Assembly: GCA_016209385.1 (NCBI GenBank)
Contig: JACQWB010000188.1
Coordinates: forward strand, 1-38,475
DNA length: 38,475 bases
Origin: Candidatus Rokuibacteriota bacterium
GTDB lineage: Bacteria > Methylomirabilota > Methylomirabilia > Rokubacteriales > CSP1-6
Reading direction: 5' to 3'
Shown here piece by piece: positions 8,004 through 33,810 of this stretch. The notes below the pieces were generated by a model, which did not search any database, was not told the DNA's origin, and saw only the letters and a program-made list of their open reading frames with translations. Each line of letters begins with the position of its first letter. Within the stretch, counting starts at the first letter, position 1. A program made the translations under genes and the position numbers.

Positions 8004-8056
8004 GTCCTCACCAGGAAGGAGAGTTGTGTCCCACTCTCGAACCGTTACACGTAGTC

Positions 8057-8628: not shown

Positions 8629-8643
8629 TCGACTCCTCCCTGA

Positions 8644-8670
8644 GTATGAATAAATTCATACCATAGTATA
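8644..8670 (-). promoter_or_regulatory. Toxin-antitoxin promoter with autoregulatory operator
   Basis: A perfect inverted repeat GTATGAAT-AA-ATTCATAC (8644-8661) sits directly downstream of a TATACT -10 box (8665-8670, minus strand), where a bound RHH antitoxin would block transcription start. The -35 region, inside the end of gcvPB, is weak. The AT-rich patch stands out from its GC-rich surroundings. Confidence 0.65.
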
Positions 8671-8699
8671 ACAGACGTGCCGGCGACAATCCTGGCGGA

Positions 8700-10184: not shown

Positions 10185-10215
10185 TGATCGCCCTCGTGAT
10201 CCTGTCGAGTCGGTC

Positions 10216-11954: not shown

Positions 11955-11978
11955 GCCCTCACCTTTCTTGTCCTTCCC

Positions 11979-12022
11979 ACCTTCATCCTCTCCCCTGAGG
12001 GGGAGAGGGTCGGGTGAGGGGG
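11979..12022 (+). repeat. Palindromic repeat, family B, copy 1
   Basis: CTTCATCC, then the near-perfect palindrome CTCTCCCCTGAGGGGGAGAG (11988-12007), then GGTCGGGTGAGGGG. The same block recurs at 37262-37305. Both copies end a few bases from the stop codon of a minus-strand gene (here gcvT), suggesting a 3'-end hairpin that shapes mRNA termini. Confidence 0.75.
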
Positions 12023-12025
12023 TGA

Positions 12026-13138
12026 CTAGCCCTTCTTGACCTTGGAGGGATAGAAGGGCGTCGGCACGATGCGCGCCCGCCGCATGGTCCCCCGCACCTC
12101 CACGTCGATCTCGGTTCCGACCTGCGCGAGCCCGGTCGGGACGTAGCCCACGCCGATGTACCTGTCCACCGCCGGCCCGTAGGAACCCGACGTCACGACC
12201 CCCGCCTCGCGCCCATCCTTCAGGATCCTGTAACCGTGGCGCGCCACCGCGCGATCCACCATCTCGAAGCCGACGAGCTTCCGCCTCGGCCCCTCGGCCT
12301 TGACCCGCTCGATCGCGCTCCTGCCGATGAAGTCGCCCTTCGCGAGCTTCACGACCCAGCCGAGGCCGGCCTCGAGCGGGTTGGTGGTCGCGTCGATGTC
12401 GTTGCCGTAGAGCGCGTAACGCATCTCGAGGCGGAGCGTATCCCGGGCGCCGAGCCCCACCGGCGTGATCCCCTCGGGCGCGCCAGCCTCCAGCAGCGCG
12501 AACCAGAGGCGCTCGGCGTCGCCCGCAACCACATACAGTTCGAAGCCGTCCTCACCCGTATAGCCTGTGCGCGAGATCAGCGCCCGCACGCCGGCCACGC
12601 GCCCTTCGACGAAGCGGTAGTAGAGGATCCCCGTGACGTCCCGGTCGGCGAGCCCCTGGACGCACTTCTCGGCCTTCGGCCCCTGGACGGCGAGGAGCGC
12701 GGTCTCGCTCGAGATGTTCCGCCAGCGCGCTTCAGCGCCGTGCTCGGTGACCCAGGCCCAGTCCTTGTCGATGTTGGCGGCGTTCACGGTGAGCATGAAG
12801 CGGTCCGCGCCGAGACGGTAGAGCGTCAGGTCGTCCACGATGCCGGCGTCGGGATAGCAGAGGAGCGAGTACTGGACCTGGCCGACCTCGAGGCCCGCCA
12901 CGTCGTTCGTCGTGAGTCGCTGGAGCGCGGCGAGCGCCGCCGGCCCGACCACCTCGAACTCGCCCATGTGGCTGATGTCGAAGAGCCCGAGGGCGCGCCG
13001 GACCGTGCGGTGCTCCTCGACGATCCCGGTGTACTGGACCGGCATCTCCCAGCCCCCGAACGGGACCATCTTGGCGCCGGCCTTCACGTGGACCGAGAAG
13101 AGCGGCGTGCGCTTCAGCGGAGCTTCGGACACGCTCAT
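12026..13138 (-). CDS. gcvT: Glycine cleavage system T protein (aminomethyltransferase)
   Basis: A 370-residue tetrahydrofolate-dependent aminomethyltransferase releasing ammonia and 5,10-methylene-THF from the aminomethylated H protein. Characteristic segments: VPFGGWEMPVQYTGIVEEH, ALGLFDISHMGEFEVVGP, LQRLTTNDVAGLEVGQVQYS, ISRTGYTGEDGFELYV, GLGARDTLRLEMRYALYGND, PLEAGLGWVVKL, and the C-terminal GYVPTGLAQVGTEIDVEVRG. Length is typical. ATG at 13138 has a good ribosome-binding site (AAAGGAG). It is the first gene of the gcvTHPAPB operon. Confidence 0.96.
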   Translation of the reverse strand: MSVSEAPLKRTPLFSVHVKAGAKMVPFGGWEMPVQYTGIVEEHRTVRRALGLFDISHMGEFEVVGPAALAALQRLTTNDVAGLEVGQVQYSLLCYPDAGIVDDLTLYRLGADRFMLTVNAANIDKDWAWVTEHGAEARWRNISSETALLAVQGPKAEKCVQGLADRDVTGILYYRFVEGRVAGVRALISRTGYTGEDGFELYVVAGDAERLWFALLEAGAPEGITPVGLGARDTLRLEMRYALYGNDIDATTNPLEAGLGWVVKLAKGDFIGRSAIERVKAEGPRRKLVGFEMVDRAVARHGYRILKDGREAGVVTSGSYGPAVDRYIGVGYVPTGLAQVGTEIDVEVRGTMRRARIVPTPFYPSKVKKG

Positions 13139-13276: not shown

Positions 13277-14221
13277 CTACGCCGTCAGACGCGGAATCAC
13301 CTCGCCAGCGATCAGCTCGACCTGCTCGGGCTGATAGCGGTACGGGATGAAGATGATCCGATGGACCCCGGCCTCGACGTGGGACCGGAGCTGGGCGACG
13401 CACTCCTCCACCGTTCCGCGGATCGCGTGCTCGATGGTGGACTCGCTCCACGCGGCCGTGTCCCACTCGGTGGTGAGCCACCGGCGCATGGGCGCCTCGA
13501 CCTCCGCCTTCGAGTGGCCGACGTAGATCGCGAGCTGGTTCGTCGCCGTGAGGCTCCTGGGATCGCGCCCGTACTCCCGGGCGAAGGCCTGGATCTCGGT
13601 CCACGACCGCGTGAACCCCTCGGGGGTGTAGAAGTAGGTGAGCCAGCCGTCCCCCATCCGCGCGACGCGCCGGAGCACCGCCTCCACGTAGCCGCCGATC
13701 AGGACGGGCGGGCGCGGCTTCTGGTAGGGCTTCGGGAGCAGCACGGCCTCCCTGAGGTTCAGGCCCTCGACCTGGGCCGTCACGGCCTCGTCGGTCCAGA
13801 GGCGCAGCAGGAGGTCCAGGTTCTGCTCGAAGATCTGGCCGCGCCGCTTGAACGGGACGCCGACCGCGTCGAACTCGCGCGCGTACCAGCCCGCCGCAAC
13901 TCCCAGGATCAGCCGGCCCTTCGAGATCTGGTCCAGGCTCGCCAGGACCTTCGCCGCCAGCACCGGGTTCCTGAGCGGGAGGACGAGGACTCCGGTTCCG
14001 AGCTTGATGCGGCTCGTCCGTGCCGCGATCGCGGTCAGGGTCGAGATGGCATCCAGGATCGGGAACGCCGGCTTGACCCCGAGGAGGACATGATCCCAGG
14101 CCCACAGCGACTCGAACCCGAGAGCCTCGGCGCGCTCGGCGTAGCGGAGGATCGCGTCAACGTCCGGCGTCTCCCCCGGGCCGACGAAGTTCCTGATGGC
14201 AAGGCCGAAGTGTACCGGCAT
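13277..14221 (-). CDS. LLM-class (luciferase-like) flavin-dependent oxidoreductase
   Basis: A 314-residue TIM-barrel protein of the luciferase-like monooxygenase/F420-dependent oxidoreductase superfamily. Seen: HFGLAIRNF at the first strand, YAERAEALGFESLWAWDHVL, SRIKLGTGVLVLPLRNPVLAAKVLASLDQISKGR and LGVAAGWYAREF, the standard cofactor-barrel block. PPVLIGGYVEAVLRRVARMGDGWL follows. Such enzymes use FMNH2 or F420 to oxygenate or reduce small substrates; cofactor and substrate cannot be told from sequence. Start ATG at 14221, 15 bases after the CoA-transferase beta gene. It is the last gene of the catabolic cluster. Confidence 0.9.
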   Translation of the reverse strand: MPVHFGLAIRNFVGPGETPDVDAILRYAERAEALGFESLWAWDHVLLGVKPAFPILDAISTLTAIAARTSRIKLGTGVLVLPLRNPVLAAKVLASLDQISKGRLILGVAAGWYAREFDAVGVPFKRRGQIFEQNLDLLLRLWTDEAVTAQVEGLNLREAVLLPKPYQKPRPPVLIGGYVEAVLRRVARMGDGWLTYFYTPEGFTRSWTEIQAFAREYGRDPRSLTATNQLAIYVGHSKAEVEAPMRRWLTTEWDTAAWSESTIEHAIRGTVEECVAQLRSHVEAGVHRIIFIPYRYQPEQVELIAGEVIPRLTA

Positions 14222-14236
14222 CCGCTGGCCCTCAGC

Positions 14237-14995
14237 TCAGAGGAACCTCCGATCCGGATCGAGGCTCCGGAGCAGCGCCAGCTCGCCCTCGCTCGGCGGC
14301 TCGGTGGTCGCCACGCGCTCGGGGATCAGAAGCTCGAAGCCGGTGTTCGCGGTCACGTCCCCCACCGAGACGCCGGGGTGAAGCGCCTCGAGCCTCATGG
14401 CCTTGCTCTCCGCGTCGAACCCGAAGATTCCCAGGTTGGTCACCACGCGGCTGACGCTCCCGAAGAGGAGGCCGGCCTTCCGCCGTGAGTCCCCCCCGCC
14501 GAGGAAGCCGGGGCTGGTTACGAAGTCCACCTGGGGGACGAAGCGCCGCCGCTCGTGCAGGGTCACCACGATCACCTGTCGGCAGAGGGAGATGATGTCG
14601 TTGGCGCCGCCGCTCCCTGGCAGCCGCACCTTCGGATGCTCGCGAGGGCCCACGATGCTCGAGTTCAGGTTGCCGTAGCGGTCGATCTGGGCGCCGCCGA
14701 CGAAGCCGACGTCCAGGGACCCGCGCTGCGCGAAGAGGAAGGTATCGGTGATGCTCGGGAGCATCTGGGCGCGGTGAGCCACGCGCATCTCGTTCGTCGA
14801 GATCGGCAGCCGGCCCGGAATGACCTCAGGACCGATGGAGCCTCCCTCGACCACGATGATCAGGTGGGGGGCACACGTCTTCTGGGCCAGCGCCGCCGAC
14901 AGGAGCGGGATGCCGACGCCGGCGAACACCGAGCCGACCCCGGCGAGCTGGCGCGCCGCCATCACGGCGAGGAGCTCCGAGGCTGAATAGCTCAT
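14237..14995 (-). CDS. CoA-transferase family protein, beta subunit (GctB/IpdB-like)
   Basis: A 252-residue small subunit of a family I CoA-transferase. The N-terminal SELLAVMAARQLAGVGSVFAG and the motif IIVVEGGSIG are family features. Glu50 in that motif lies where glutaconate CoA-transferase has its catalytic glutamate, so genuine CoA transfer is plausible. The related IpdAB ring hydrolases of steroid catabolism lack it. LPGSGGANDIISLCRQVIVV and FVTSPGFLGG are further landmarks. ATG at 14995 is 12 bases after the alpha-subunit stop. The two subunits should form an alpha2beta2 enzyme; acyl donor and acceptor are unknown. The Glu50 alignment is by eye. Confidence 0.85.
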   Translation of the reverse strand: MSYSASELLAVMAARQLAGVGSVFAGVGIPLLSAALAQKTCAPHLIIVVEGGSIGPEVIPGRLPISTNEMRVAHRAQMLPSITDTFLFAQRGSLDVGFVGGAQIDRYGNLNSSIVGPREHPKVRLPGSGGANDIISLCRQVIVVTLHERRRFVPQVDFVTSPGFLGGGDSRRKAGLLFGSVSRVVTNLGIFGFDAESKAMRLEALHPGVSVGDVTANTGFELLIPERVATTEPPSEGELALLRSLDPDRRFL

Positions 14996-15007
14996 CGGCC
15001 CACCTGC

Positions 15008-15955
15008 CTACACCAGCTCCCTGGCCGCGCGGCACTGGCGGGCGAGGGCTTCGTCGCCGAAGAGCGCGAGGTACTCCCGATGGCTCCGCGCCCCGTAGAC
15101 ATAGCGGTCCAGGTACTCCCGGATCGCCTGCGACCCCTTTTCGGTGATCGCGGCCACGTAGGCGTCGAAGTGCGAGACGTCGGCCTCGTACAGCCCGTAG
15201 CACTCGTGGGGGAAGGCACCGTAGGGGACCTCCACGACGGCATCCACCACGAGGCCCGGGATCACCGTTCGGTCGGGGTGGCGCCGGATCTCGTCCTCGG
15301 GGATGATCTCCTCCGCCGTGACGAGCACGGTCGTCGCCGCGCGCGCGATGTCGGGGTCCATGTGGGGGTAGCCGTCGATCTGGCAATTGCCGAACCGGTC
15401 GGCGCGATGGACGTGAAGCACCGCCACGTCGGGGAAGAGCGCGGGGACGAGGCAGAGGGTCTCGCCGGTGAACGGGCACGCCATGGTCCGCGCGTCGGCG
15501 ATCCCCATGAGATCCGAGCCGAGCATCGTGAGCGTCGGCAGGAAGGGGACGCCCATGGCGGCGGCGCGATAGCGCAGCCCGAGCGCCAGGTGGCTCCACT
15601 CCTCGTAACGGATCCGGCCGCTCTCGACCTCCTCGCGCATGATCCGCGAGAGTCCCCACGGCAGCCCGATGCCGAACCAGCTCGTCACGACTGCTTCCAC
15701 CGCCCCGGCCGCCATGAACCACTCGCCCTCGTAGCACATCAGGTTCCGCGAGAGCGTGAGGCCCCTTCGACCCTGGCGGAGCACTTCACTCAGGAGCGCC
15801 AGCGGAGTCCGGGAGAAGAGGCAGCCGCCGATCGCGATGTGATCGCCGTCCTTGACGCGCCTCACGGCCTCGGCGAGCGTCGTGAGCTTCTCCGCCCCGA
15901 TCCGCGGCTTCGCCTCGAGCCGCCGACGCGCCTCGACAAAGTCGCCGGACCTCAA
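15008..15955 (-). CDS. CoA-transferase family protein, alpha subunit (GctA/IpdA-like)
   Basis: A 315-residue partner of the beta subunit. Typical features: KLTTLAEAVRRVKDGDHIAIGGCLFSRTPLALLSEVLRQG at the N-terminus, LTLSRNLMCYEGEWFMAAGAVEAVVTSWFGIGLPWGLSRIMREE, VPFLPTLTMLGSDL, and FPDVAVLHVHRADRFGNCQIDGYPHMDPDIARAA, the CoA-transferase alpha block. The apparent start is TTG at 15955, overlapping the TGA of the upstream PLP-enzyme gene (TTGA); no in-frame ATG lies near the N-terminus. It resembles GctA/IpdA and CaiB-unrelated family I enzymes rather than acetate CoA-transferases. Function in the pathway is inferred from neighbours only. Confidence 0.85.
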   Translation of the reverse strand: MRSGDFVEARRRLEAKPRIGAEKLTTLAEAVRRVKDGDHIAIGGCLFSRTPLALLSEVLRQGRRGLTLSRNLMCYEGEWFMAAGAVEAVVTSWFGIGLPWGLSRIMREEVESGRIRYEEWSHLALGLRYRAAAMGVPFLPTLTMLGSDLMGIADARTMACPFTGETLCLVPALFPDVAVLHVHRADRFGNCQIDGYPHMDPDIARAATTVLVTAEEIIPEDEIRRHPDRTVIPGLVVDAVVEVPYGAFPHECYGLYEADVSHFDAYVAAITEKGSQAIREYLDRYVYGARSHREYLALFGDEALARQCRAARELV

Positions 15956-17001
15956 TCGATGACCTCCCAGCGCGGCTGGAAGCGATCCAGGAGCGCCCGG
16001 CTCCGCTGATCGAGCGGGTGCTCGCGCTCCGGCACTTCCACGTGCTTGGCCTCTCCGCAGAGCGCCGTGGAGAAGTAGCGCTGGCCGGTATCGCAGGCCA
16101 GGACCACGATCGGCAGAAGTTCCGGGTGCTTGAGGGCGAGCTTCACGCCGGCTGCGACGTTACACCCCGAGGAGATCCCGCAGAAGATCCCTTCCTCGCG
16201 CGCGAGGCGCCGCGCCATCGCGACGCTCGCCTCGGTGCTCACGGTGATCACGCCCGTGAGGAGCGCAACGTCCAGGTTCTCGGGGACGAAGCCGTCGCCG
16301 ATCCCCTCGATCCCGTGAGAACCCCACCGTCGGTGCGCGAGAATCGGGCACTCGGCAGGCTCGACGGCATACAGGGCGACGCGGGGCTGGCGCTCCCGAA
16401 GATAGCGCCCGACACCGGTGAGAGTCCCGCCCGAGCCCTGGGCCGCGACGAAGGCCCCGATCCGGCCCTCGCACTGCTCCCAGATCTCGGGCCCGGTGGT
16501 CAGATAGTGCGCCTCGACGTTGTCAGCATTCGTGAACTGGCCCGGCACCCAGTAGCGGCCCGGATCGCGCGCGCGGATCTCCTCGAGCTTCTTGAGCGAG
16601 AGGTCCACGTCACTCTCGCCGCCCGGCGTGAAGATCAGTTCGGCGCCATAGGCCCGCATGAGCTTCTTCCGCTCCTCGCTCATCCCCTCGGGCATGACGA
16701 TCGTGCAGGCGTAGCCCTTCACCGCCGCCACGAAGGCGCACGCGGCCCCTGCGTTCCCCGTCGAGCACTCGAGAACCGCCATCCCCGGCTCCAGCTCACC
16801 TCGGCGCTCGGCCCGTTCGAACATGTGGAGATAGATCCGGTCCTTGAGGCTTCCCGTCGGCCCGTACCACTCGAGCTTCACGAGGATCGCAGGCGCGACA
16901 TCACCGGGCACGCGCCGGAGCCTGACGAGCGGGGTCCGCCCGACGGCCTCGGTCAGGCGTCCGAGGGCGCGGGCGTATGCGCTCCATTGGATGGTGCTCA
17001 T
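15952..17001 (-). CDS. Cysteine-synthase-family PLP-dependent enzyme (CysK/CysM/CBS-like)
   Basis: A 349-residue fold-type II PLP enzyme that performs beta-replacement or beta-elimination. The PLP lysine is Lys53 in GPTGSLKDR, which differs from the NPxxSVKDR of classical CysK. The phosphate-binding loop is GSGGTLTGVG, and VLECSTGNAGAACAFVAAV and ISSGCNVAAGVKLAL are also typical. The C-terminal ~40 residues add a short tail (VPEREHPLDQRSRALLDRF) without a CBS domain. Cysteine synthesis is the default annotation. However, its place between UbiD and CoA-transferase genes, with a 4-base overlap to the latter, suggests another beta-substitution or lyase reaction in the pathway. ATG at 17001 is 16 bases past the ubiD stop. 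Confidence 0.85.
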   Translation of the reverse strand: MSTIQWSAYARALGRLTEAVGRTPLVRLRRVPGDVAPAILVKLEWYGPTGSLKDRIYLHMFERAERRGELEPGMAVLECSTGNAGAACAFVAAVKGYACTIVMPEGMSEERKKLMRAYGAELIFTPGGESDVDLSLKKLEEIRARDPGRYWVPGQFTNADNVEAHYLTTGPEIWEQCEGRIGAFVAAQGSGGTLTGVGRYLRERQPRVALYAVEPAECPILAHRRWGSHGIEGIGDGFVPENLDVALLTGVITVSTEASVAMARRLAREEGIFCGISSGCNVAAGVKLALKHPELLPIVVLACDTGQRYFSTALCGEAKHVEVPEREHPLDQRSRALLDRFQPRWEVID

Positions 17002-17017
17002 AACGGGGCGAATTCTA

Positions 17018-18400
17018 TCACTGCCCGCGTGATCCGCCCAGCCGGTCCACCAGCTCCCGAGCCCACGCCCTCTTCTCCGGGCTCATGAGGAGCTTCTCCG
17101 CGAAGGGCTGGCCGAACGGCCGGGTGGCGTCGATGCCGATCTTCGCCGTCACCCCTTGCTCGCTGGCCGAGGGGTCGAGGATGGCGCCCAGGCTGCCCGA
17201 GATGACGACGAGATCGCGGTCGGCCTGGACACGGGTGGCCAGGGCCCAGAGGACATCCGACTCGTCGAAGACATCGATGTCATCGTCCACGATCACGACG
17301 AACTTCAGGTAGTGGTCCACCCCGAAGACGACGGGAATGGCGTGTTTGCCCTCGCCCGGCCGGGTCTGCTTGATCGAGACGAAGGCCGTGAAGGCGGCAC
17401 AGCCCGAGGTCGGGACGTGGACGGCCTTGACGTTCGGGACGACCCGGCTCAGGGCGTTTCTGATCTCCACCTCCCGGAGGACGCCCAGCGGCAGGATGTG
17501 GTCGGGCGCGCGCCCCGAGCTGATGGACTGGAACCAGGGGCGCTCCCGCATACAGATCGCTTTCGCGATGAAGACGTGCTCGGTGCTCCGGCGGGCGAAA
17601 TAACCGGTGAACTCCCCGAAGGGGCCCTCTTTCTCCCGCACCCCCGCCAGGATCTCGCCCTCGATGACGATCTCGCCCCACGCCGGGACCATCAGGTCGA
17701 TGGTCTTGCAGGGTGCGATCTGCATCGGCGCCTGAAAGAGCCCGCCGACCACCTCGAACTTGGAGACCTCGGGCGGAGGATAGGCGAGCGACCCGAGGCT
17801 GACGCAGGGGTGGAGCCCGATGACGACAGCGCACTCGAGGTTCTTCCCCGCGGCCTCGGCCCGCCGCTGGTACTCGAACATCCGCCGCCGCGAGTGGAGG
17901 CTCACCCCCATCTTGTTCCGCCCCTTGACCTGGTAGCGGTGGTAGCCCTCGGTCTCCACCCCCGTGCCGGGGTCCTTGGCCACGGTCATCGCCGCGGTGA
18001 TGTAGGGCCCGCCGTCCCCGGGGAAATACGTGGGGATAGGGAGCTTCGAGAGGTCCACCTGCTCGCCGGTCAGGACCGTGTGGTGGAAGGGCGGATCGGG
18101 GACCACCACCGGCTTGACGTATTCCTTGAGGCGCCGCGCGTACTCGAAGGGCATGCCGGCCGCGTCGACCCCGAGGGCACAGGCGAAGACGCGCCGGCTG
18201 GCCATGACGTTGGAGATCACGGGGATCCGGTGCCCGACGACGTTCTCGAACAGGAGGATCGGGAACCGACGACGTCGCTCCAGCTCCAGGGCGACGGCCT
18301 GGAGGTCGAATTCCAGGCTCACCGGCTCGGTGACGCGGACGAACTCGCCGGCATGCCTCGTCGCGTACTCCTCGACGAACGACCGGAGATCCTGCTTCAT
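17018..18400 (-). CDS. UbiD-family (de)carboxylase
   Basis: A 460-residue prenylated-FMN-dependent decarboxylase acting on alpha,beta-unsaturated or aromatic carboxylates. Recognisable parts: LRSFVEEYATRHAGEFVRV, ILFENVVGHRIPVISNVMAS, ITAAMTVAKDPGTGV, YHRYQVKGRNKMGVSLHSRR, and EIVIEGEILAGVREKEGPFGEFTGYF with the acidic catalytic residues. The C-terminal HVPTSGCAAFTAFVSIKQTRPGEG and VVIVDDDIDVFDESDVLWA follow. No UbiX prenyltransferase lies in the window, so the cofactor must be supplied elsewhere. The start is ATG at 18400, overlapping the molybdenum-hydroxylase stop by four bases (ATGA); the long upstream frame is a shadow. Confidence 0.92.
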   Translation of the reverse strand: MKQDLRSFVEEYATRHAGEFVRVTEPVSLEFDLQAVALELERRRRFPILLFENVVGHRIPVISNVMASRRVFACALGVDAAGMPFEYARRLKEYVKPVVVPDPPFHHTVLTGEQVDLSKLPIPTYFPGDGGPYITAAMTVAKDPGTGVETEGYHRYQVKGRNKMGVSLHSRRRMFEYQRRAEAAGKNLECAVVIGLHPCVSLGSLAYPPPEVSKFEVVGGLFQAPMQIAPCKTIDLMVPAWGEIVIEGEILAGVREKEGPFGEFTGYFARRSTEHVFIAKAICMRERPWFQSISSGRAPDHILPLGVLREVEIRNALSRVVPNVKAVHVPTSGCAAFTAFVSIKQTRPGEGKHAIPVVFGVDHYLKFVVIVDDDIDVFDESDVLWALATRVQADRDLVVISGSLGAILDPSASEQGVTAKIGIDATRPFGQPFAEKLLMSPEKRAWARELVDRLGGSRGQ

Positions 18401-20817
18401 GCCGCTGATCCCTCCCCGCCGGAATCCTGACCAAGGGGTCGTGGCCCCGAGCCCACTGCTCCCGGGGAGCCCGGCGCAGCCCGATTTCCTCGGAGGAGCG
18501 CCGCCAGGCGGGCCGGGGTGACGGGAGTCCGGGTGATCCGCACGCCGAAGGGCGCCAGCGCGTCCTCGACGGCGCCGGCGATGGCCGTGGGAGGTGAGAT
18601 GGCCCCACCTTCTCCGAGGCCCTTCATCCCCAGCGGGTTGAGCGGCGAGGGAAAATCGAGGTGGACGGTCTCGATGAACGGAAGCTCGTCGGCCACGGGA
18701 ATGTGGTAGTCCATGAAGCCGCTCGAGAGGAGCTGGCCCGCCTCGTCGTACACGATCTCCTCGAACATCCCGCCGCCGATGCCCTGGGCGACGCCGCCGT
18801 GGATCTGGCCGTCCACGATCATCGGGTTGATGACGTGCCCGCAGTCGTGAGCGACGACGTAGCGGAGGAGCCTGACCCAGCCGGTCTCGGGGTCCACCTG
18901 GACCTGGGCGATGTGGACCGCGCTCGCGAAGGTCACCGTGGGGACGTGGTGGTAGGCGGTAGCCTCGAAGGTCGGCTCGATCACGCCGGGCTTCTCGAAC
19001 GTGGGGAAGCTCGCCTGGATGACGCGGGCCAGGGGGATCGCCGACGACGGGACGCCGCGCACGAACACCTGGCCGTCCTCGATCTCCAGGTCGTCGGCGC
19101 GCGCCTCCAGGAGCTTGGCCGCTGCCGCTACTACCTTCTCCCTCACCTGGCGTGACGCCGTCGTAACGGCGCTGCCTGCCACCACGGCGCTCCGGCTCGC
19201 GAATGTGCCGATCCCGAAAGGAATCCGGTCGGTGTCGCCGCCGTGGACCGTGACCCATTCGATGGGGACGCCGAGGACGTCGGCGGCGAGCTGGGCGAAG
19301 GAGGTCTCGTGCCCCTGGCCCTGGCAGCAGGCGCCGGTGGCGACGACGACGCGCCCCGTCGCGTCCAGCTTGACCGAGGCGCCCTCGTAGGGGCCGATGC
19401 CGGTTCCCTCGACGTAGGCCGAGATCCCGATCCCGCGGAAGATGCCGTTCGCTCTGAGCGCGGCCTGCTCCTTCCGGAAATCGTCGTAGCCCGACGCCCG
19501 GAGCGCGTCGTCCAGCATCGCGCGGAAGTCGCCGCTGTCGTAGACGAGGGGGTTCCCGTCGCGGTAGGGCATTCCGGTGTCATAGGGCATCTCGTCCCCG
19601 CGGATGAAGTTCCGGCGACGGAGCTCTGCGGGATCCATCCGAAGCTCCCGCGCGAGGCAATCCACGATCCGGTCCATGGCGAAGACCGTCTCCGGACGGC
19701 CCGCGCCGCGGTACGGCGCGTTCGGCGTCTTGTTCGTGACGACGGCCTTGAACTCCACCCAGAGGTTCCGGATGCGGTACGGGCCGAGGAGGTGGGCCAC
19801 CGTGTTGTAGGGGAGGACGATCCCCCAGGAGTTGTAGGCGCCGAGGTCGAGCCAGATCCTGTCGCGGACGCCGAGGATCGTACCGTCCCGCGTCGCCGCG
19901 ATCTCGACGTCGTGGAGCTGGTCCCGGGCGTGGGCGGCGCTCATCATGTGCTCGCGGCGGGTCTCCGTCCACTTGACCGGCCGACCCAGCTCGCGCGCCA
20001 TGAGCGGGATCAGGATCTCCTCGGCGTAGCCGCAGGCCTTCGTCCCGAAGCCCCCGCCGACGTCAGGAGCCACGACGCGGACTTTGTGAATGGGCACCTC
20101 GAGCGCCGCCGCGACGCCCTGCTGGCAGAAGTGCACCACCTGTGTCGAGCTCCACACGGTGAGCGTGGCATCGCGACGGTCAAAGCTCGCGACCACGCCG
20201 CGGGGCTCGATGGGCATCCCGACGTAGCGCTGGATCTTGAAGCGCTCCCTCGCCACGACCGCCGCGGCGCTGAAGGCCGCCTCGGCGTCTCCAACCGCAT
20301 GCGTGAATGCCACCGCCACATTGTCGCCCCACTGGGGATGCACCAGGGCAGCGCCCGGTTCCCCGCCAGCGACGGGATCCGTGACAGCCGGGAGCGGCTC
20401 GTACTCCACCTCGATCAGGCCCAGCGCGTCCTCGGCCAGATACGGGGAGTCGGCGACAACCAGCGCGACCGTCTCCCCCACATAGCGGACGACATCGCGA
20501 GCGAGGGGAAACTGGGGAGCGTCCTTGAGCCTGAACTCGACGCGCGCGGCGAGGCCGGGCGGCGGGCTCCCGAACGTGGGAAGCGGCTTCAGCCAGCGCG
20601 CCAGGTCGTCGAAGGTGTACACGGCGCGGACTCCGGGGTGCCGCCGCGCCGCATCGGTGTGGATCGCCCGGATCCTGGCATGAGCGTGAGGGCTCCGCAG
20701 GAAGGCGGCGTAGAGGAGCCCCGGCAGCGTGAGGTCGTCAACGAAGCGCCCCTGCCCCGTGAGGTACCGGGGATCTTCCCGCCGCTTCACCGACGCCCCG
20801 AAGTACTTCGCGCCCAT
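18397..20817 (-). CDS. Molybdenum hydroxylase large (molybdopterin-binding) subunit, xanthine dehydrogenase/CoxL family
   Basis: An 806-residue Mo-cofactor subunit. N-terminal: GASVKRREDPRYLTGQGRFVDD, LYAAFLRSPHAHARIRAI and DVVRYVGETVALVVADS. The molybdopterin region has VRVVAPDVGGGFGTKACGYAEEI, then PNAPYRGAGRPETVFAMDRI. That PYRGAGR motif marks the aldehyde-oxidase/CoxL form II-like group, not the AYxCSFR of true CO dehydrogenase. ATGACCQGQGHETSFAQLAAD and the catalytic-glutamate segment KGLGEGGAI close the domain. No FAD (medium) or 2Fe-2S (small) subunit gene is adjacent, which is unusual. ATG at 20817 has a GGAAGGAG ribosome-binding site. Likely hydroxylates a heteroaromatic, aldehyde or related substrate. 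Confidence 0.92.
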   Translation of the reverse strand: MGAKYFGASVKRREDPRYLTGQGRFVDDLTLPGLLYAAFLRSPHAHARIRAIHTDAARRHPGVRAVYTFDDLARWLKPLPTFGSPPPGLAARVEFRLKDAPQFPLARDVVRYVGETVALVVADSPYLAEDALGLIEVEYEPLPAVTDPVAGGEPGAALVHPQWGDNVAVAFTHAVGDAEAAFSAAAVVARERFKIQRYVGMPIEPRGVVASFDRRDATLTVWSSTQVVHFCQQGVAAALEVPIHKVRVVAPDVGGGFGTKACGYAEEILIPLMARELGRPVKWTETRREHMMSAAHARDQLHDVEIAATRDGTILGVRDRIWLDLGAYNSWGIVLPYNTVAHLLGPYRIRNLWVEFKAVVTNKTPNAPYRGAGRPETVFAMDRIVDCLARELRMDPAELRRRNFIRGDEMPYDTGMPYRDGNPLVYDSGDFRAMLDDALRASGYDDFRKEQAALRANGIFRGIGISAYVEGTGIGPYEGASVKLDATGRVVVATGACCQGQGHETSFAQLAADVLGVPIEWVTVHGGDTDRIPFGIGTFASRSAVVAGSAVTTASRQVREKVVAAAAKLLEARADDLEIEDGQVFVRGVPSSAIPLARVIQASFPTFEKPGVIEPTFEATAYHHVPTVTFASAVHIAQVQVDPETGWVRLLRYVVAHDCGHVINPMIVDGQIHGGVAQGIGGGMFEEIVYDEAGQLLSSGFMDYHIPVADELPFIETVHLDFPSPLNPLGMKGLGEGGAISPPTAIAGAVEDALAPFGVRITRTPVTPARLAALLRGNRAAPGSPGAVGSGPRPLGQDSGGEGSAA

Positions 20818-20827
20818 CGGTTCTCCT

Positions 20828-20890
20828 TCCGAGCGCGCAACCCTCCTGGCGAGAGGTTTCGGAAGGGGGGCAACGCCCCCCTCCGAGGGT
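20828..20890 (-). repeat. Palindromic intergenic repeat, family A, copy 3 (partial)
   Basis: Read on the minus strand: CGGAGGGGGGCGTTGCCCCC hairpin, then CCGAAACCTC, GCCAGGAGG and TTGCGCGCTCGGA. It is a shortened family A copy lying between the livF stop (20891) and the molybdenum-hydroxylase ribosome-binding site. It begins immediately after the TAA of livF. Confidence 0.7.
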
Positions 20891-21595
<705 letters not shown>

Positions 21596-21598
21596 CTC

Positions 21599-23437
21599 TC
21601 ACAGGCCCCCGAGGTAGGCTCTGATCACTTCGGGGTGGCCCTGGATCTCGCCCGGCGGCCCCTTCGCGATCACCTGGCCGTGGTGCAGCGCGATCACCCG
21701 GTCCGAGATCCCCATGACCAGCCGCATGTCGTGCTCGACGAGGAGGACCGTCACGCCTTCCTCCCGGATCCGCTGAATGAGCCGCATGACCGCCGTCTTC
21801 TCCGCCGGGTTCATCCCCGAAGCCGGCTCGTCCAGGAGGAGGAGGCGCGGGCGCGCGGCTAGGCCGATGGCCAGCTCCAGGCGGCGCTGCTCGCCGTACG
21901 GCAGGGCGCTCGCCACCTCGTCACGCCGGTGGGCGAGGCCGACGAAGGCGAGGATCTCCTCGACCTGGGCCGCCAGACGTGCCTCTTCCTCCCTCACGCG
22001 CCGAACGCCGATCAGGATCGAGAGGACACCGGCCCGCCCCCTCAGGTGGAGGCCGATCAGGACGTTCTCGAAGACCGAGATCTGGGGGAAGACGTTCGTT
22101 TTCTGAAACGTCCTCACGATGCCCCGCTCGGCGACCTGGTACGGCCTCAATCCTGTCAGAGGCTCACCCTCGTAGAGGACTCGCCCCCGGACAGGCCTGA
22201 GGAAGCCGGTGATGACGTTGAACGCGGTCGTCTTGCCGGCGCCGTTGGGGCCGATGAGGCTCGTGATCCTGCCCGGCTCGACCTCGAAGCTGACGCCGGC
22301 CAGCGCAGTGACGCCGCCGAACCTCACCGCGAGATCTTCGACAGCCAGGCTCATACATCCTCGGAGGGGGGCTCCGCCCCCCTTCCGATGCCTCCCCCCA
22401 TGGGTTGCGCCGGCGAAGCCGGCGCTCGGAACGCTCGGGGCCAACTCGGTAAAGACGCGGCGAGCCTTAAAACAGGGTAGCTCATCCCGCAGCTCGCCGC
22501 TCCCTGAGCCAGGCTTCAGCGTCGGCACCATGCCCTTGGGCAGGAAGAAGACGGTGAGGACCAGCAGCACACCGTAGAGGAGCATCTGCCACTGCCACGA
22601 GGTCACCGCGCGGAGCGCCTCAGGGAGCGCCGTGAAGATGAGGGCGCCGAGCACCGGGCCGGCCAGCGTCCCCTTCCCGCCGGCGACGACCATGATCACC
22701 ATGGTGACCGTGTAGGTGAAGAGGAAGACCTCGGGGCTCACGAAGCGCGTGTAGTGGGCGTAGAGGCTTCCCGCAGCTCCGGCCATCGCCGCGCTGACGA
22801 CCGCAGCCAGGACCAGGTAGCGGGTCCCGTTGATGCCGACCGATTCGGCGAGCGCCTCGTTCTCTCTGAGCGCGACGAAGGCGCGACCGATCCGCGAGTT
22901 CACCAGCCGGTGGCAGATGAAGAAGGCCACCGCCGCCACGGCCAGGACCAGGTAGTAGTAGGCTGGTTTGCTCCTGAACGAGAGCTCGCCGAGCCCGCCG
23001 ATGCTGAGCTCTGCGGGCGGCACATCAGGCAGCCCGAGAGGCCCGTTGGTCAGCTCCATCCAGTTCACGCTCACCAGGTAGATTACGCCGGCGAAGCTGA
23101 TCGTCACCAGGACGAAGTACGCGCCCCTGAGCTTCAGCGACACCTTTCCCAGCCCGTAGCCGGCGATCCCGGCGAGGAGTACCGCCGCCAGAAAGCCGCT
23201 CCAGACCGGCCACTCCAGCTTCAGCGTGAGGAGCGCCGAGGCGTAGGCGCCGATGCCGAAGAAAGCCGCGTGGCCGAGGGAGAGCTGGCCGGTGTAGCCC
23301 AGGAGGAGGTTCAGGGAGAGCGCGAGGATCGCGAAGATCCCGGCCATGATCAGGATGTGGATGTAGTACGGGTTCCAGATCCAGAGCGGGACCGTCACGA
23401 GGCTCAACGCCAGGAGGGCGCGCACGGCGCGCTTCAT
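21599..23437 (-). CDS. livM-livG: LivM permease-LivG ATPase in-frame fusion
   Basis: A single uninterrupted 612-codon frame. Residues 1 to about 308 are a LivM-type permease with about nine hydrophobic segments and the NLLLGYTGQLSLGHAAFFGIGAY and LRENEALAESVGIN signatures. Residues 362-612 are LivG: Walker A GPNGAGKTT, variant signature LPYGEQRRLEL, Walker B LLLLDEPASGMNP. The roughly 53-residue linker is partly translated from a family A repeat (RKGGGAPLRG). Normally livM and livG are separate genes, so the stop appears to have been lost when the repeat arose at the junction. An internal ATG at 22354 (MSLAVEDLAV) with a nearby GAGG could still make free LivG. ATG 23437 overlaps livH by four bases. 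Confidence 0.85.
   Translation of the reverse strand: MKRAVRALLALSLVTVPLWIWNPYYIHILIMAGIFAILALSLNLLLGYTGQLSLGHAAFFGIGAYASALLTLKLEWPVWSGFLAAVLLAGIAGYGLGKVSLKLRGAYFVLVTISFAGVIYLVSVNWMELTNGPLGLPDVPPAELSIGGLGELSFRSKPAYYYLVLAVAAVAFFICHRLVNSRIGRAFVALRENEALAESVGINGTRYLVLAAVVSAAMAGAAGSLYAHYTRFVSPEVFLFTYTVTMVIMVVAGGKGTLAGPVLGALIFTALPEALRAVTSWQWQMLLYGVLLVLTVFFLPKGMVPTLKPGSGSGELRDELPCFKARRVFTELAPSVPSAGFAGATHGGRHRKGGGAPLRGCMSLAVEDLAVRFGGVTALAGVSFEVEPGRITSLIGPNGAGKTTAFNVITGFLRPVRGRVLYEGEPLTGLRPYQVAERGIVRTFQKTNVFPQISVFENVLIGLHLRGRAGVLSILIGVRRVREEEARLAAQVEEILAFVGLAHRRDEVASALPYGEQRRLELAIGLAARPRLLLLDEPASGMNPAEKTAVMRLIQRIREEGVTVLLVEHDMRLVMGISDRVIALHHGQVIAKGPPGEIQGHPEVIRAYLGGL
22361..22429 (+). repeat. Palindromic intergenic repeat, family A, copy 4, inside the livM-livG frame
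   Basis: TCGGAGGGGGGCTCCGCCCC hairpin, then CTTCCGATGCCTCCCCCCAT, GGGTTGCGC and the second hairpin GCCGGCGAAGCCGGC. It is closest to the copy at 27761. It lies just upstream of the internal livG ATG and is translated in the fused frame. Confidence 0.75.
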
Positions 23438-24306
23438 CCCACGCGCTCGGCCCGGGCGAAGAGGCCCGACGGTCTCAGGAGGAGGACGAGGATGATGATG
23501 GCGAAGCCGACGGCGTCGCGGTACCCGGAGGAGATGTACCCCGCGCCGAGCTCCTCGGCGACGCCGAGGAGCAGGCCACCCAGCGTCGCGCCGGCGAAGT
23601 TGCCGAGGCCGCCGAGGATGACGACGGAGAACGCCTTGAGCGCGGCGAGGTCGCCCATGGACGGGTAGACGACGAAGATCGGGCCCAGGAGCGCCCCCGC
23701 CGCGGCGGCCAGGCCCGACCCGAAGGCGAAGGTGACCGTGTGGATCCGATGGATGTCCACCCCCATGAGCGCCGCCGTCTCGCGGTCCTGAAAGGTCGCG
23801 CGCATGGCCCGGCCCAGCTTCGTCCGGTGGATCAGGAGATGCGAGGCCACGATGAGGGCGAGGGCCGTCCCGAACACGAAGAGCCGCAAAGGTGCCACGG
23901 AGACCGGCCCCAGGACGAGCGGCGCCTGGGGGAAGGGATGGTCGAGACTCTTGGCCACGCCTCCCCACACGACGAGCTCGGCGTTCTGCATCGCGATCCA
24001 GACCCCGATCATGACCAGCATGGTGGTCTCGATGGACTCGCCGAGGAGCGGGCGGAGCAGCACGCGCTCACACAACGCGCCGAGGAGGACGCCGAGGGCG
24101 ACGGCGCAGACAAGCCCGGCGAAGAAGTTGGCCTGGAGGAGGCTCAGGAAGAGGAAGGCGCCGTACGCGCCGAGGGTGTAGAACTCGCCGTGGGCAAAGT
24201 TCACCACGCTCATGATCCCGAAGATGAGCGTGAGGCCGATTCCCAGGAGCGCGTACGTCCCGCCCAGGATCAGGCCGTTCAGGATGTGCTGGAGAAACGC
24301 CTCCAC
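23434..24306 (-). CDS. livH: Branched-chain-type ABC transporter permease LivH
   Basis: A 290-residue inner-membrane permease with about eight hydrophobic helices. The opening LQHILNGLILGGTYALLGIGLTLIFGIMSVVNFAHGEFYTLGAY is the LivH hallmark. MRATFQDRETAALMGVDIHRIHTVTFAFGSGLAAAAG and GLGNFAGATLGGLLLGVAEELGAGY follow as expected. The start appears to be GTG at 24306 (no ATG in range). It overlaps LivM by four bases. A large hairpin separates it from the substrate-binding-protein gene, which would let the binding protein be made in excess. Confidence 0.92.
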   Translation of the reverse strand: MEAFLQHILNGLILGGTYALLGIGLTLIFGIMSVVNFAHGEFYTLGAYGAFLFLSLLQANFFAGLVCAVALGVLLGALCERVLLRPLLGESIETTMLVMIGVWIAMQNAELVVWGGVAKSLDHPFPQAPLVLGPVSVAPLRLFVFGTALALIVASHLLIHRTKLGRAMRATFQDRETAALMGVDIHRIHTVTFAFGSGLAAAAGALLGPIFVVYPSMGDLAALKAFSVVILGGLGNFAGATLGGLLLGVAEELGAGYISSGYRDAVGFAIIILVLLLRPSGLFARAERVG

Positions 24307-24319
24307 GCGAGGGGAAACA

Positions 24320-24382
24320 GAGCGCCCCCGGCCCCCTCACCTTGAATAGGCGACAGGGCGAGGGGGCCAGCCGGGGGCGCTC
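24320..24382 (-). terminator. Strong intergenic hairpin between the binding-protein gene and livH
   Basis: GAGCGCCCCCGGCCCCCTC (24320-24338) pairs with GAGGGGGCCAGCCGGGGGCG plus CTC (24360-24382), with a CA bulge and a loop of about 20 bases. There is no U-run. It likely acts as an mRNA stabiliser or partial terminator, a common device for keeping binding protein above permease levels. Confidence 0.6.
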
Positions 24383-24395
24383 GGGCGCGTTGGGA

Positions 24396-25580
24396 CTAGC
24401 GCCTGGCCATGAACGTCGGCAGGCTCACCTTCCCGCCTTTGATCTCGACGACGAAGATGCTCGGCTGGCTCTGGGCGCTCTCCTTGCCGGGCGGGCCGTC
24501 CTTCTCGAACTTGACCGGGCCGTTCACGCCCATGATCTTGACATTCCAGAGGGCGTCGCGGACCGCCTTGGGCTCGGCCTTCCCCGCCAGCCGGACCGCC
24601 TCAACGATCGTCAGGATTCCGTCGTGGCCGCGGAACCCCTCGGTCAGCCCGGCGAAGGGGTGACCGCGCTTGTTCCACTCGTCCACAAACGCCTTCGCAA
24701 GCTTGCCGTCGGGCATGGCCTCGGGGAACCAGGGGAGGAAGAAGAGGATGTGGTAGGTCCCCTCGGCTGCCGCCCCGGCCTGCTTCACGAGCTGATCGGG
24801 CGAGGAGCTCCCGCCGGTGGTGATGAACTTCCGGACCAGCCGCTGCTCCTGCGCCTGCTTGAGGACGAGGGTGATCTGTTCGACGCTCGTGGTCAGGAAG
24901 AGCGTGTCCGCTCCGGTCCCGCGGATCTTGGTGAGCTGGGCACTCATGTCCGTCGCCGCCTGGTCCATGAACTCCACGGCGCCCACGCTGGCGCCCCGCT
25001 TCTTGAGGATGTCGCCGAAGGCCGAGACGGCGCCGCGCCCCCAGTCGGTGTTGACCGCGAGGAAGTCGGCCTTCTTCACCCCGAGGTCGCCCAGGTACTT
25101 CTGGAGCCCCAGGGCCTCCATCTCGCTGGGCGGGCTGATCCTGAACACCCACGGGTTCCCTTTCTTGGTGATCGAGGCCGCGCTCGATGTCTCGACGACC
25201 ATCGGCACCCCGTACTCCTCGAGCTTGGGCATCACGGCAAGCGTCATCGAGCTCCCCCAGGCCCCCATGATCGCCGGAACCTTGTCCCGGACAATCAGCT
25301 TTTCCGCCGCGCTGGCGGCCTCCTTCGGGTCCGACTTGTTGTCCTCGATCACAAGCTGGATCGGCCGGCCCCGGACCCCGCCCCGAGCGTTGATCCAGTC
25401 ACGGGCGATCTCTGTCCCCATGCGCACATAGTTCCCCGAAGCCGCCACCGGACCCGACAGGGGCTGGATCACCCCGATCTTGATCGGCTCCGCCTGCTGA
25501 GCGAGCACGGAGGCGACCGCCAGTGCTCCCAGGGCGGCGACCCCCACGAGGACGCTGAGAATACGGCGTCTCTGCCCCAT
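24396..25580 (-). CDS. Periplasmic substrate-binding protein of a LIV/HAAT-type ABC importer
   Basis: A 394-residue Peripla_BP_6 (LivK-like) protein. The Sec signal peptide is about residues 1-27 (RRRILSVLVGVAALGALAVASVLA, cleaved near AQQA). The mature domain opens IKIGVIQPLSGPVAASGNYVRMG and continues LVIEDNKSDPKEAASAAEKLI, VPAIMGAWGSSMTLAV and VPMVVETSSAASITKKGNPWVFR, all standard. It captures the solute for LivH/LivMG/LivF. The ligand cannot be read from sequence. ATG at 25580 with a GGGAGGAAGAG ribosome-binding site. First gene of the import/catabolic unit. Confidence 0.93.
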   Translation of the reverse strand: MGQRRRILSVLVGVAALGALAVASVLAQQAEPIKIGVIQPLSGPVAASGNYVRMGTEIARDWINARGGVRGRPIQLVIEDNKSDPKEAASAAEKLIVRDKVPAIMGAWGSSMTLAVMPKLEEYGVPMVVETSSAASITKKGNPWVFRISPPSEMEALGLQKYLGDLGVKKADFLAVNTDWGRGAVSAFGDILKKRGASVGAVEFMDQAATDMSAQLTKIRGTGADTLFLTTSVEQITLVLKQAQEQRLVRKFITTGGSSSPDQLVKQAGAAAEGTYHILFFLPWFPEAMPDGKLAKAFVDEWNKRGHPFAGLTEGFRGHDGILTIVEAVRLAGKAEPKAVRDALWNVKIMGVNGPVKFEKDGPPGKESAQSQPSIFVVEIKGGKVSLPTFMARR

Positions 25581-26425: not shown

Positions 26426-27310
26426 TTACTCCAGCCCCAGGAGGCGGGCGGGGTTCTCGGCCGCCATCGTGCGGATCTCCTCGGCGGTGATCCCCCGCTC
26501 CAGCAGCATCTGGATGAACGTTCGGAGGCCTTCGGCGGGCGTGGGATGGTGGAGCTGGCCGAAGTCGGTGCCGAGGACACAGTGCCGGGGCCCCACCTCG
26601 CGGATGGACTTGGCCATCTCCTCGAGCGAGATGCTCTGCCAGGCCGGCATCATCGTGATCAGGTCTTTCTCCAAAAGCGCCCCCTCGGCAGCCAGGGCTT
26701 TCTGGTCGTTCAGGGAAATGCCGGACAGCCCGAGATCGGGGTGCGTGACCAGGATCTTCTTCACGCCGGCCTTCCGGGCCTCGCTGACCAGGACTTTAAT
26801 CTCGGGCAAGGAAAGGTGACCGGTCGAGAGGCAGACATCCGCCTCAGCGATCAGCCCGAGGATCTCACGCGTCTCGGCGGTCAGCTCCCCGTGCTCGGTC
26901 AGGACGCGGACGCCCTGGCGCGCCGCGCGGAGCCCGGCCCGCGGCACCATGCTCCGGCCGAAGTGGCTCCCCCCGAAGAAGTCGATGTGGTGCTGGGCCG
27001 AGAGAGTCGGCATCCAGACCATCCTGCCGCCGAGCTTGATCGAGGCGTCCACCGCGTGCGGGTTGAGACCACCCACGACCCAGTTCAGCACGATCCCGCC
27101 GAAGACCTCCACGCCGGGGACCTGCTTCCGCACGAGGAACGCCCGCCCCGTAGTGTCCTGCTCGTGCGCCTTGATGAGCACCCCGCGCATGGCGCGGCGC
27201 CGGGCCTCCGAGGCCAGGCCGAGGTCGTCGGTGACCCGCTCGAAGAGGCTCGGCGCCGCGTGCTGGTGGAGGTCGATAGCGCCGCGGAGCAGCTCGTCGC
27301 AGAGATCCAT
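26426..27310 (-). CDS. DUF6282-type amidohydrolase-like protein
   Basis: A 294-residue metal-dependent hydrolase-fold protein. The N-terminal metal motif is DLHQHAAPSLFER (His15 and His17). Further candidate ligands are in STGHLSLPEI, VTHPDLGLSG and the C-terminal GTDFGQLHHPTP, an amidohydrolase-type barrel pattern. The C-terminal EEIRTMAAENPARLLGLE helix is the classic ending of amidohydrolases (NPARLLGL). This matches the DUF6282 group, for which I know no assigned reaction. Start ATG at 27310, just after the lipoprotein gene. Confidence 0.8.
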   Translation of the reverse strand: MDLCDELLRGAIDLHQHAAPSLFERVTDDLGLASEARRRAMRGVLIKAHEQDTTGRAFLVRKQVPGVEVFGGIVLNWVVGGLNPHAVDASIKLGGRMVWMPTLSAQHHIDFFGGSHFGRSMVPRAGLRAARQGVRVLTEHGELTAETREILGLIAEADVCLSTGHLSLPEIKVLVSEARKAGVKKILVTHPDLGLSGISLNDQKALAAEGALLEKDLITMMPAWQSISLEEMAKSIREVGPRHCVLGTDFGQLHHPTPAEGLRTFIQMLLERGITAEEIRTMAAENPARLLGLE

Positions 27311-28655: not shown

Positions 28656-28666
28656 GGCCTCACTCC

Positions 28667-30330: not shown

Positions 30331-30338
30331 CAGCGTAG

Positions 30339-30555: not shown

Positions 30556-30559
30556 AATT

Positions 30560-32499: not shown

Positions 32500-32519
32500 G
32501 GAAACGGGGCTCCTTTGCG

Positions 32520-33803: not shown

Positions 33804-33810
33804 GGCGCCG

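What the first reader, a model, noticed from the sequence alone, without database searches (positions are those of the whole stretch)
13277..25580. Putative single transcription unit linking a LIV-type importer to a molybdenum hydroxylase, UbiD (de)carboxylase, PLP lyase, CoA-transferase and LLM oxidoreductase
The genes run binding protein, livH, livMG, livF, Mo-hydroxylase L, ubiD, CysK-like, GctA-like, GctB-like, LLM, all on one strand. Most junctions overlap or are under 20 bases apart, and the only sizeable gaps are short hairpin or repeat spacers. I know no characterised pathway with this exact set. UbiD needs a carboxylated unsaturated or aromatic substrate, the Mo hydroxylase inserts oxygen from water, and LLM uses flavin or F420. 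Together they suggest import and breakdown of an aromatic or heteroaromatic acid by a route not yet described. The CysK-like protein inside it hints at sulfur or amino-group chemistry. The lone L subunit without FAD and 2Fe-2S partners is a further oddity.
Basis: partly seen in the sequence, partly recalled or inferred. Interest (0 to 1): 0.8.

Follow-up and report, generated by a model that had tools for sequence, protein, structure and literature searches.

The report
F420-linked import and degradation gene cluster
This stretch is a real, widely conserved gene cluster that imports and breaks down a still unknown, probably nitrogen-containing ring acid using the rare cofactor F420, and relatives of it occur in soil and root-nodule bacteria, where the reason for making F420 is an open question.

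Summary
Gaps run from -4 to 16 bases, except 73 and 89 bases; the 89-base gap holds a strong hairpin. In a Chloroflexota genome the same order recurs at 64-76% identity, except that the Mo-hydroxylase M and S subunits sit where the window has ubiD. So the lone L subunit is derived (M/S lost repeatedly in relatives), and ubiD is a lineage-specific insert: its orthologs lie elsewhere in relatives. gctA-gctB-LLM stays contiguous in 62 of 67 testable loci from several phyla, with a cysteine-synthase-fold enzyme directly upstream in 54 of 74. The LLM protein is very probably F420-dependent. F420 biosynthesis genes sit inside the cluster in 16 of 28 proteobacterial loci, and CofD was found in all 17 checked genomes. 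Proteobacterial versions add PntAB, an M20 deacylase, diaminopropionate ammonia-lyase and 5-oxoprolinase. Best reading: import, Mo-hydroxylation, F420H2-dependent reduction and hydrolysis of an N-heteroaromatic acid, with CoA transfer and PLP elimination of nitrogen. The substrate is unknown. The Sinorhizobium meliloti version matches the accessory genes tagged in a published nodule-competitiveness association study.

The parts
24396..25580 (-). Periplasmic substrate-binding protein of the LIV/HAAT type
   Evidence: Pfam Peripla_BP_6 1.6e-67; orthologs 74-90% next to livH in relatives
24307..24395 (-). Spacer with strong hairpin between SBP and livH
   Evidence: -59.3 kcal/mol, z -3.56
23434..24306 (-). 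livH permease
   Evidence: BPD_transp_2 4e-47
21599..23437 (-). livM permease and livG ATPase in one 612-aa ORF (separate genes in relatives)
   Evidence: BPD_transp_2 and ABC_tran in one frame without a stop
20891..21595 (-). livF ATPase
   Evidence: ABC_tran 1.5e-32; best NCBIfam LivF
18397..20817 (-). Molybdenum hydroxylase large subunit (form II CoxL-like, YRGAGR motif), without adjacent M and S subunits
   Evidence: MoCoBD_1/2; nearest solved structures CoxL 8uem and quinoline 2-oxidoreductase 1t3q; motifs kept 24/24
17018..18400 (-). UbiD-family (de)carboxylase; occupies the slot of MoM-MoS in the Chloroflexota version
   Evidence: TIGR00148 332 bits over cut-off; nearest PDB 6h6v; orthologs elsewhere in relatives
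15952..17001 (-). CysK-like PLP enzyme, conserved upstream neighbour of gctA
   Evidence: PALP 3.7e-76; directly upstream of gctA in relatives; Schiff-base Lys motif GS[LV]KDR 31/31
15008..15955 (-). Class I CoA-transferase subunit A (GctA-like)
   Evidence: CoA_trans 7.2e-30; 1poi_A 3.3e-43
14237..14995 (-). Class I CoA-transferase subunit B (GctB-like) with catalytic Glu in VVEGG
   Evidence: 1poi_B 1.3e-43; Glu kept in 75/76 homologs, the other truncated there
13277..14221 (-). F420-dependent LLM oxidoreductase (TIGR03619)
   Evidence: 210.4 bits over cut-off 166.9; linkage and co-occurrence with F420 biosynthesis
26426..27310 (-). DUF6282 amidohydrolase-like protein, candidate ring-opening enzyme (possible further member)
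   Evidence: DUF6282 3.2e-71; homologs at 41-42% sit inside or beside the cluster in Chloroflexi L118 and L109
27873..30429 (-). pxpA, pxpC, pxpB (5-oxoprolinase-type lactam hydrolase), possible further members
   Evidence: LamB_YcsF, CT_A_B, CT_C_D; pxpA follows LLM in five same-family genomes, and pxpA or pxpABC occurs in eight fully flanked proteobacterial loci

Best explanation
The locus is a catabolic island for an imported carboxylated N-heteroaromatic compound. The LIV-type transporter imports it. The Mo-hydroxylase adds an oxygen from water next to a ring nitrogen. The LLM enzyme transfers hydride from F420H2 to the oxidised ring. Hydrolases (in the window, candidates DUF6282 and PxpABC; elsewhere M20 deacylase or dihydroorotase) open the ring. 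The GctAB-like CoA-transferase activates an acid intermediate or product, and the CysK-like PLP enzyme eliminates nitrogen from a beta-substituted alanine-type intermediate. In this lineage ubiD was added, probably for a carboxylated or decarboxylated variant of the substrate. Shown here: gene identities, conservation of the unit, linkage to F420 synthesis, intact catalytic motifs. Inferred: the order of steps, the direction of the F420 reaction, the substrate class and the role of CysK.
For: The whole order recurs in Chloroflexota L109 as SBP-livHMGF-MoL-MoM-MoS-cysK-gctA-gctB-LLM at 64-76% identity, and partly in Rokubacteria. gctA-gctB-LLM is contiguous in 62/67 testable loci, and a PALP enzyme lies directly upstream in 54/74. 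cofE/D/C/GH and npdG sit in the cluster in 16/28 fully flanked proteobacterial loci, with PntAB (an NADPH supplier) in 11/28. CofD was found in 17/17 genomes checked, 16 over the cut-off and one partial. In Bradyrhizobium gctA occurs in 5/120 genomes and CofD in 25/120; 4 of the 5 gctA genomes have CofD, about 13 kb away. The own genome has CofD and NpdG on one contig, C31. The GctB catalytic Glu is kept. MoL resembles N-heterocycle hydroxylases such as quinoline 2-oxidoreductase. An M20 deacylase (17/28) and diaminopropionate ammonia-lyase (10/28) also occur in the reductive uric acid pathway, where the authors propose an F420 LLM reductase for Chloroflexota (PMC12507026).
Against: No substrate, transcript or enzyme activity is known. 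The predicted LLM fold does not separate F420 from FMN enzymes. The ring-opening enzymes differ between lineages, and in the window their membership rests on proximity. The need for a CoA-transferase is not explained by a purine-like route. Lone MoL lacks cluster-encoded electron-transfer subunits; partners would have to be 47-49% paralogs from other loci.
Confidence: 0.5

Rival explanations
1. The LLM enzyme is an FMN-dependent monooxygenase and the cluster is an oxygen-dependent aromatic acid pathway; the nearby F420 genes serve other enzymes.
For: The nearest structures by fold are FMN monooxygenases such as 3rao and SfnG 8t0u; LLM enzymes are often FMN monooxygenases.
Against: Score over the curated cut-off of an F420 subfamily; F420 synthesis genes directly beside gctA-gctB-LLM in many loci and CofD in every genome checked; no flavin reductase was recognised in the cluster.
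Confidence: 0.12
2. The pathway is a purine or ureide degradation route like the reductive uric acid pathway, ending in 2,3-diaminopropionate.
For: Mo-hydroxylase, reductase, M20 peptidase and diaminopropionate ammonia-lyase parallel XdhD, YgfK, YgeY and YgeX; a PucR-type regulator stands beside the Streptosporangiales cluster and DUF1989 beside the ANGP1 cluster.
Against: No SsnA, HyuA or YgeW homolog was recognised in the clusters examined; GctAB and LIV import have no role in that pathway; several versions, the window's included, lack the M20 and diaminopropionate steps.
Confidence: 0.2
3. The pathway converts pyrrole-2-carboxylate-like acids through 5-oxoproline to glutamate: Mo-hydroxylase at C5, F420H2 reduction, then PxpABC.
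For: pxpA or pxpABC beside the cluster in several lineages and in the window; UbiD closest to the furandicarboxylate decarboxylase HmfF 6h6v; GctAB-type enzymes favour C5 dicarboxylates (general knowledge).
Against: Does not need CysK, M20 deacylase or diaminopropionate ammonia-lyase; pxpABC with D-glutamate cyclase is a common independent set.
Confidence: 0.13
4. Unrelated neighbours: a general amino-acid importer and several independent enzymes that happen to lie together.
For: In most Rokubacteria the importer and MoL are not fused with cysK-gctAB-LLM.
Against: The complete order recurs in Chloroflexota, and parts of it recur in several phyla.
Confidence: 0.05

Closest known systems
Reductive uric acid degradation pathway (E. 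coli XdhD-YgfK-SsnA-HyuA-YgeW-YgeY-YgeX; PMC12507026)
   Same: Mo-hydroxylase family enzyme plus a reductase; proteobacterial versions share the M20 deacylase and diaminopropionate ammonia-lyase families; an F420 LLM reductase is proposed there for Chloroflexota
   Different: No SsnA, HyuA or YgeW recognised; has a LIV importer, GctAB-type CoA-transferase and CysK-like enzyme
Accessory F420 / GctAB / Pnt / Liv gene set tagged in S. meliloti nodule competitiveness (PMC8407117)
   Same: Homologous cluster: livHMGF, npdG-cof genes, gctA-gctB-LLM, M20, pntAB, XdhLMS (L036), with diaminopropionate ammonia-lyase; strain GR4 carries the gctA homolog
   Different: Reported there as separate COG hits without a pathway; the R28 locus has no CysK-like gene and no ubiD
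Glutaconate CoA-transferase GctAB (1poi)
   Same: Both subunits align over most of their length and the catalytic Glu of the B subunit is kept
   Different: No curated equivalog cut-off is reached; different gene company
Cysteine synthase CysK
   Same: Fold, Schiff-base lysine and PLP phosphate loop
   Different: Just below the CysK/CysM cut-off (341.9 vs 344.15); substrate loop STGNAG in place of TSGNTG
HmfF furan-2,5-dicarboxylate decarboxylase (UbiD family, 6h6v)
   Same: Best solved relative of the window UbiD (286 bits)
   Different: No UbiX over cut-off found in the genome; different gene context

Membership tests
F420-dependent LLM class (TIGR03619) | Score over the curated model cut-off | tested here: met
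   210.4 vs 166.9 bits
F420-dependent LLM class (TIGR03619) | Host makes F420 | tested here: met
   CofD over cut-off on G000 C31, NpdG over cut-off on the same contig; gene presence only
F420-dependent LLM class (TIGR03619) | F420 rather than FMN bound | tested here: inconclusive
   Fold search returns both FMN and F420 enzymes
Class I CoA-transferase (GctAB type) | Catalytic Glu in the B subunit | tested here: met
   VxEGG in 75/76 homologs, the other row truncated; absent in the AibB decarboxylase alignment
Class I CoA-transferase (GctAB type) | Glutaconate or glutarate as substrate | not testable with these tools
   Needs an assay
Aerobic CO dehydrogenase (form I CoxL) | AYXCSFR copper-binding motif | tested here: not met
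   YRGAGR (form II type) in 24/24 orthologs; below the CODH cut-offs
Molybdenum hydroxylase LMS enzyme | Adjacent FAD (M) and 2Fe-2S (S) subunits | tested here: not met
   Absent in the window; present next to orthologous MoL in several relatives
Reductive uric acid pathway | SsnA, HyuA and YgeW/UacY | tested here: not met
   None recognised by Pfam among the cluster genes examined
Reductive uric acid pathway | Diaminopropionate ammonia-lyase (YgeX type) | tested here: not met
   Not in the window; present in 10/28 fully flanked proteobacterial loci
Cysteine synthase CysK/CysM | Score over the curated cut-off | tested here: not met
   341.9 vs 344.15 and 334.4 vs 350.95 bits
UbiD-family decarboxylase | Score over TIGR00148 cut-off | tested here: met
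   332 vs 244.85 bits
UbiD-family decarboxylase | prFMN supply by UbiX in the host | tested here: inconclusive
   Only a weak match, 23.6 vs 108.9 bits, in a 95% complete assembly
LIV branched-chain amino acid transporter of E. coli | Equivalog cut-offs of LivH, LivG, LivF | tested here: not met
   165/379, 261/362, 271/441 bits: LIV-type, ligand open

The most novel reading that the evidence does not exclude
Soil and symbiotic bacteria hold a cross-phylum pathway in which F420H2 drives reductive dearomatisation of a hydroxylated N-heteroaromatic acid under aerobic conditions. That pathway would be a main reason why these Proteobacteria and Rokubacteria make F420, and in S. meliloti it would help strains compete for nodules.
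Probability: 0.35. Interest if true: 0.85.

Novelty: new variant of a known kind. Interest (0 to 1): 0.62.

Why it matters
A 2021 review (PMC8498797) lists why Proteobacteria and Chloroflexi make F420 as unanswered. This module puts F420 synthesis, its NADPH supply, one F420 enzyme, an importer and a Mo-hydroxylase in one heritable unit found in culturable bacteria (Sinorhizobium, Bradyrhizobium, Labrys, Nitratireductor, Aminobacter, Cupriavidus). The question becomes directly testable by knock-out and growth assays. It also gives a common frame for the separate gene hits of a nodule-competitiveness study and corrects the reading of ubiD and the lone L subunit.

Tried and rejected
IpdAB/AibAB-type hydrolase or decarboxylase for GctAB: rejected as first choice because the CoA-transferase Glu is kept. 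CO dehydrogenase for MoL: rejected on motif. Fold search to tell F420 from FMN in LLM: not decisive. Fold search for the 500-aa proteobacterial PLP enzyme: returns the cysteine synthase fold only, no substrate. Rfam search of the window: nothing. Sigma-70 promoter and terminator scans: at chance level. A first MoL tree used wrong-strand translations for four rows and was discarded. Row 11 of alignment A4 was a wrongly placed stretch and A4 was not used. Literature searches for a described pathway with this gene set gave only the uric acid and S. meliloti papers as relevant.
Full report
Observation. The window is a complete contig (C188) of a 4.57-Mb draft genome, 95% complete. By kinship it belongs to the Rokubacteria: the closest named homologs of its gctA include Candidatus Rokuibacteriota genomes. 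The gene run is as described: SBP, livH, livMG, livF, MoL, ubiD, cysK, gctA, gctB, LLM on the minus strand. Gaps are -4, 3, -4, 16, -4, 12 and 15 bases, with 89 bases (a hairpin of -59 kcal/mol, z -3.6) behind SBP and 73 bases before MoL. livM and livG form one open frame here but are separate in relatives.

Conservation inside the family. In 20 regions fetched around gctA orthologs of the same family, gctA-gctB-LLM was present in all and cysK preceded gctA in 19, at 63-82% identity. The orthologous LIV operon (65-90%) and MoL (68-81%) occur in the same genomes, sometimes beside the module, sometimes divergent, sometimes elsewhere. ubiD has true orthologs (69-88%) in many of these genomes but at other loci. 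One genome, G007, keeps ubiD next to cysK (L083) and, on another contig, livHMGF next to MoL (L218).

Decisive comparison. In a Chloroflexota MAG (L109) the order is SBP-livH-livM-livG-livF-MoL-MoM-MoS-cysK-gctA-gctB-LLM, with 64-76% identity to the window proteins over nearly all of their length. The window differs by having ubiD in place of MoM-MoS. This shows the unit is old or transferred as a whole, and that ubiD is the odd member.

The lone L subunit. MoL orthologs have M and S beside them in several Rokubacteria (L101, L201, L205, L210, L213, L214, L217; an M subunit also beside MoL in L040) and stand alone in 14 of the 24 sequences put in the tree, the window's included. Alone and paired forms are mixed in the tree, with at least three forced changes. 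Genomes with lone MoL have no M ortholog above 53% identity, against 56-67% for adjacent M genes compared with the L213 query. The cofactor and active-site motifs GGGFG, YRGAGR, GQGHE and GEGG are intact in 24/24. The likely state is an active L subunit that borrows M and S from a paralogous set; this is inferred.

Spread beyond the family. A scan of GTDB species genomes with a gctA profile returned 80 loci from Rokubacteria, Chloroflexota, ANGP1, Streptosporangiales, Vicinamibacteria and alpha-, beta-, gamma- and deltaproteobacteria. gctA-gctB-LLM is contiguous in 62 of 67 testable loci, and a cysteine-synthase-fold enzyme lies directly upstream in 54 of 74. In Proteobacteria that enzyme is a divergent 500-aa family; its predicted structure (pLDDT 85) matches cysteine synthases. 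Loci without it more often carry diaminopropionate ammonia-lyase (8 of 10, counting the S. meliloti one found, against 3 of 18; Fisher p = 0.003, phylogeny not corrected). This suggests, but does not show, that the two can stand in for each other.

F420. The LLM protein scores over the TIGR03619 cut-off. In 16 of 28 proteobacterial loci with full flanks, F420 synthesis genes (cofE/D/C/GH) and npdG lie beside it, and PntAB in 11. CofD was found in 17 of 17 genomes checked, 16 over cut-off and one a partial gene. In Bradyrhizobium 25 of 120 genomes have CofD and 5 have gctA; 4 of those 5 have CofD about 13 kb from gctA, and the fifth is a small fragmentary assembly. The four are close relatives, so this is one lineage. 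The own genome has CofD and NpdG together on contig C31. NpdG with PntAB points to NADPH-driven formation of F420H2, so reduction is the likely direction (inferred). The predicted LLM structure (pLDDT 90) does not separate F420 from FMN enzymes.

Chemistry. MoL is of the N-heterocycle hydroxylase type (nearest structures include quinoline 2-oxidoreductase). GctB keeps the catalytic Glu of class I CoA-transferases in 75 of 76 sequences, the last being truncated, so CoA transfer is more likely than the hydrolase chemistry of degenerate relatives. Companion genes in other lineages are an M20 deacylase (17/28), diaminopropionate ammonia-lyase (10/28), 5-oxoprolinase subunits (pxpA 8/28), L-serine dehydratase (6/28) and a dihydroorotase in S. 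meliloti. All fit opening of a lactam or ureide ring and elimination of nitrogen. The parallel with the reductive uric acid pathway (PMC12507026) is one of logic, not membership: SsnA, HyuA and YgeW were not recognised.

Link to a known phenotype. The S. meliloti pSymA locus (L036) contains livHMGF, npdG-cof genes, gctA-gctB-LLM, M20, pntAB, XdhLMS, SBP and a diaminopropionate ammonia-lyase region 63% identical to the Bradyrhizobium enzyme. A published association study lists these functions (F420 synthesis, Liv, GctA/GctB, Mo-hydroxylase, PntAB, PyrC, diaminopropionate ammonia-lyase) among genes of the most competitive nodule colonisers GR4, KH35c and KH46, without joining them into a pathway (PMC8407117). 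GR4 carries the gctA homolog. That the study's hits are this one cluster is my inference from the matching list.

Verdict. It is best described as an F420-linked catabolic module of unknown substrate. I put 0.5 on the reductive N-heteroaromatic acid model as a whole, and would put about 0.85 on the narrower claim that this is a conserved catabolic unit with an F420-dependent enzyme.

Noticed in passing
window 27873-31348: pxpA, pxpC, pxpB and a D-glutamate cyclase homolog, same strand, a 5-oxoproline-type set upstream of the cluster.
   Followed up: partly
window 31486-33929: 2-hydroxyacid dehydrogenase next to a lactate racemase (LarA) family protein.
   Followed up: no
window 7161-13138: Glycine cleavage genes (gcvT, gcvP1, gcvP2, a probable gcvH frame 11559-11954) with a lipoate-protein ligase family gene directly downstream of LLM; not seen beside the module in relatives.
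   Followed up: partly
L143-L180, e.g. L144:8441-9940: A 500-aa PALP family with a GAHKV lysine motif, directly upstream of gctA where present in Proteobacteria; only 47 Pfam bits, seemingly undescribed.
   Followed up: partly
L036:28315-29499: Diaminopropionate ammonia-lyase homolog in S. meliloti R28 pSymA, not listed in the plasmid gene table; my gene caller splits it into two frames, so it may be interrupted.
   Followed up: partly
G000 whole genome: No UbiX (prFMN synthase) over the model cut-off although a UbiD gene and four more UbiD-family hits are present.
   Followed up: partly
L107-L133: Many Rokubacteria carry isochorismatase, a DHDPS-family protein, an SDR and a second LIV operon directly after LLM; in some the isochorismatase and DHDPS domains are one protein.
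   Followed up: partly
L136, L137, L174: Other gctAB clusters in Delta- and Betaproteobacteria with ubiD genes in place of LLM nearby, two of them with a PaaK-like CoA ligase.
   Followed up: no
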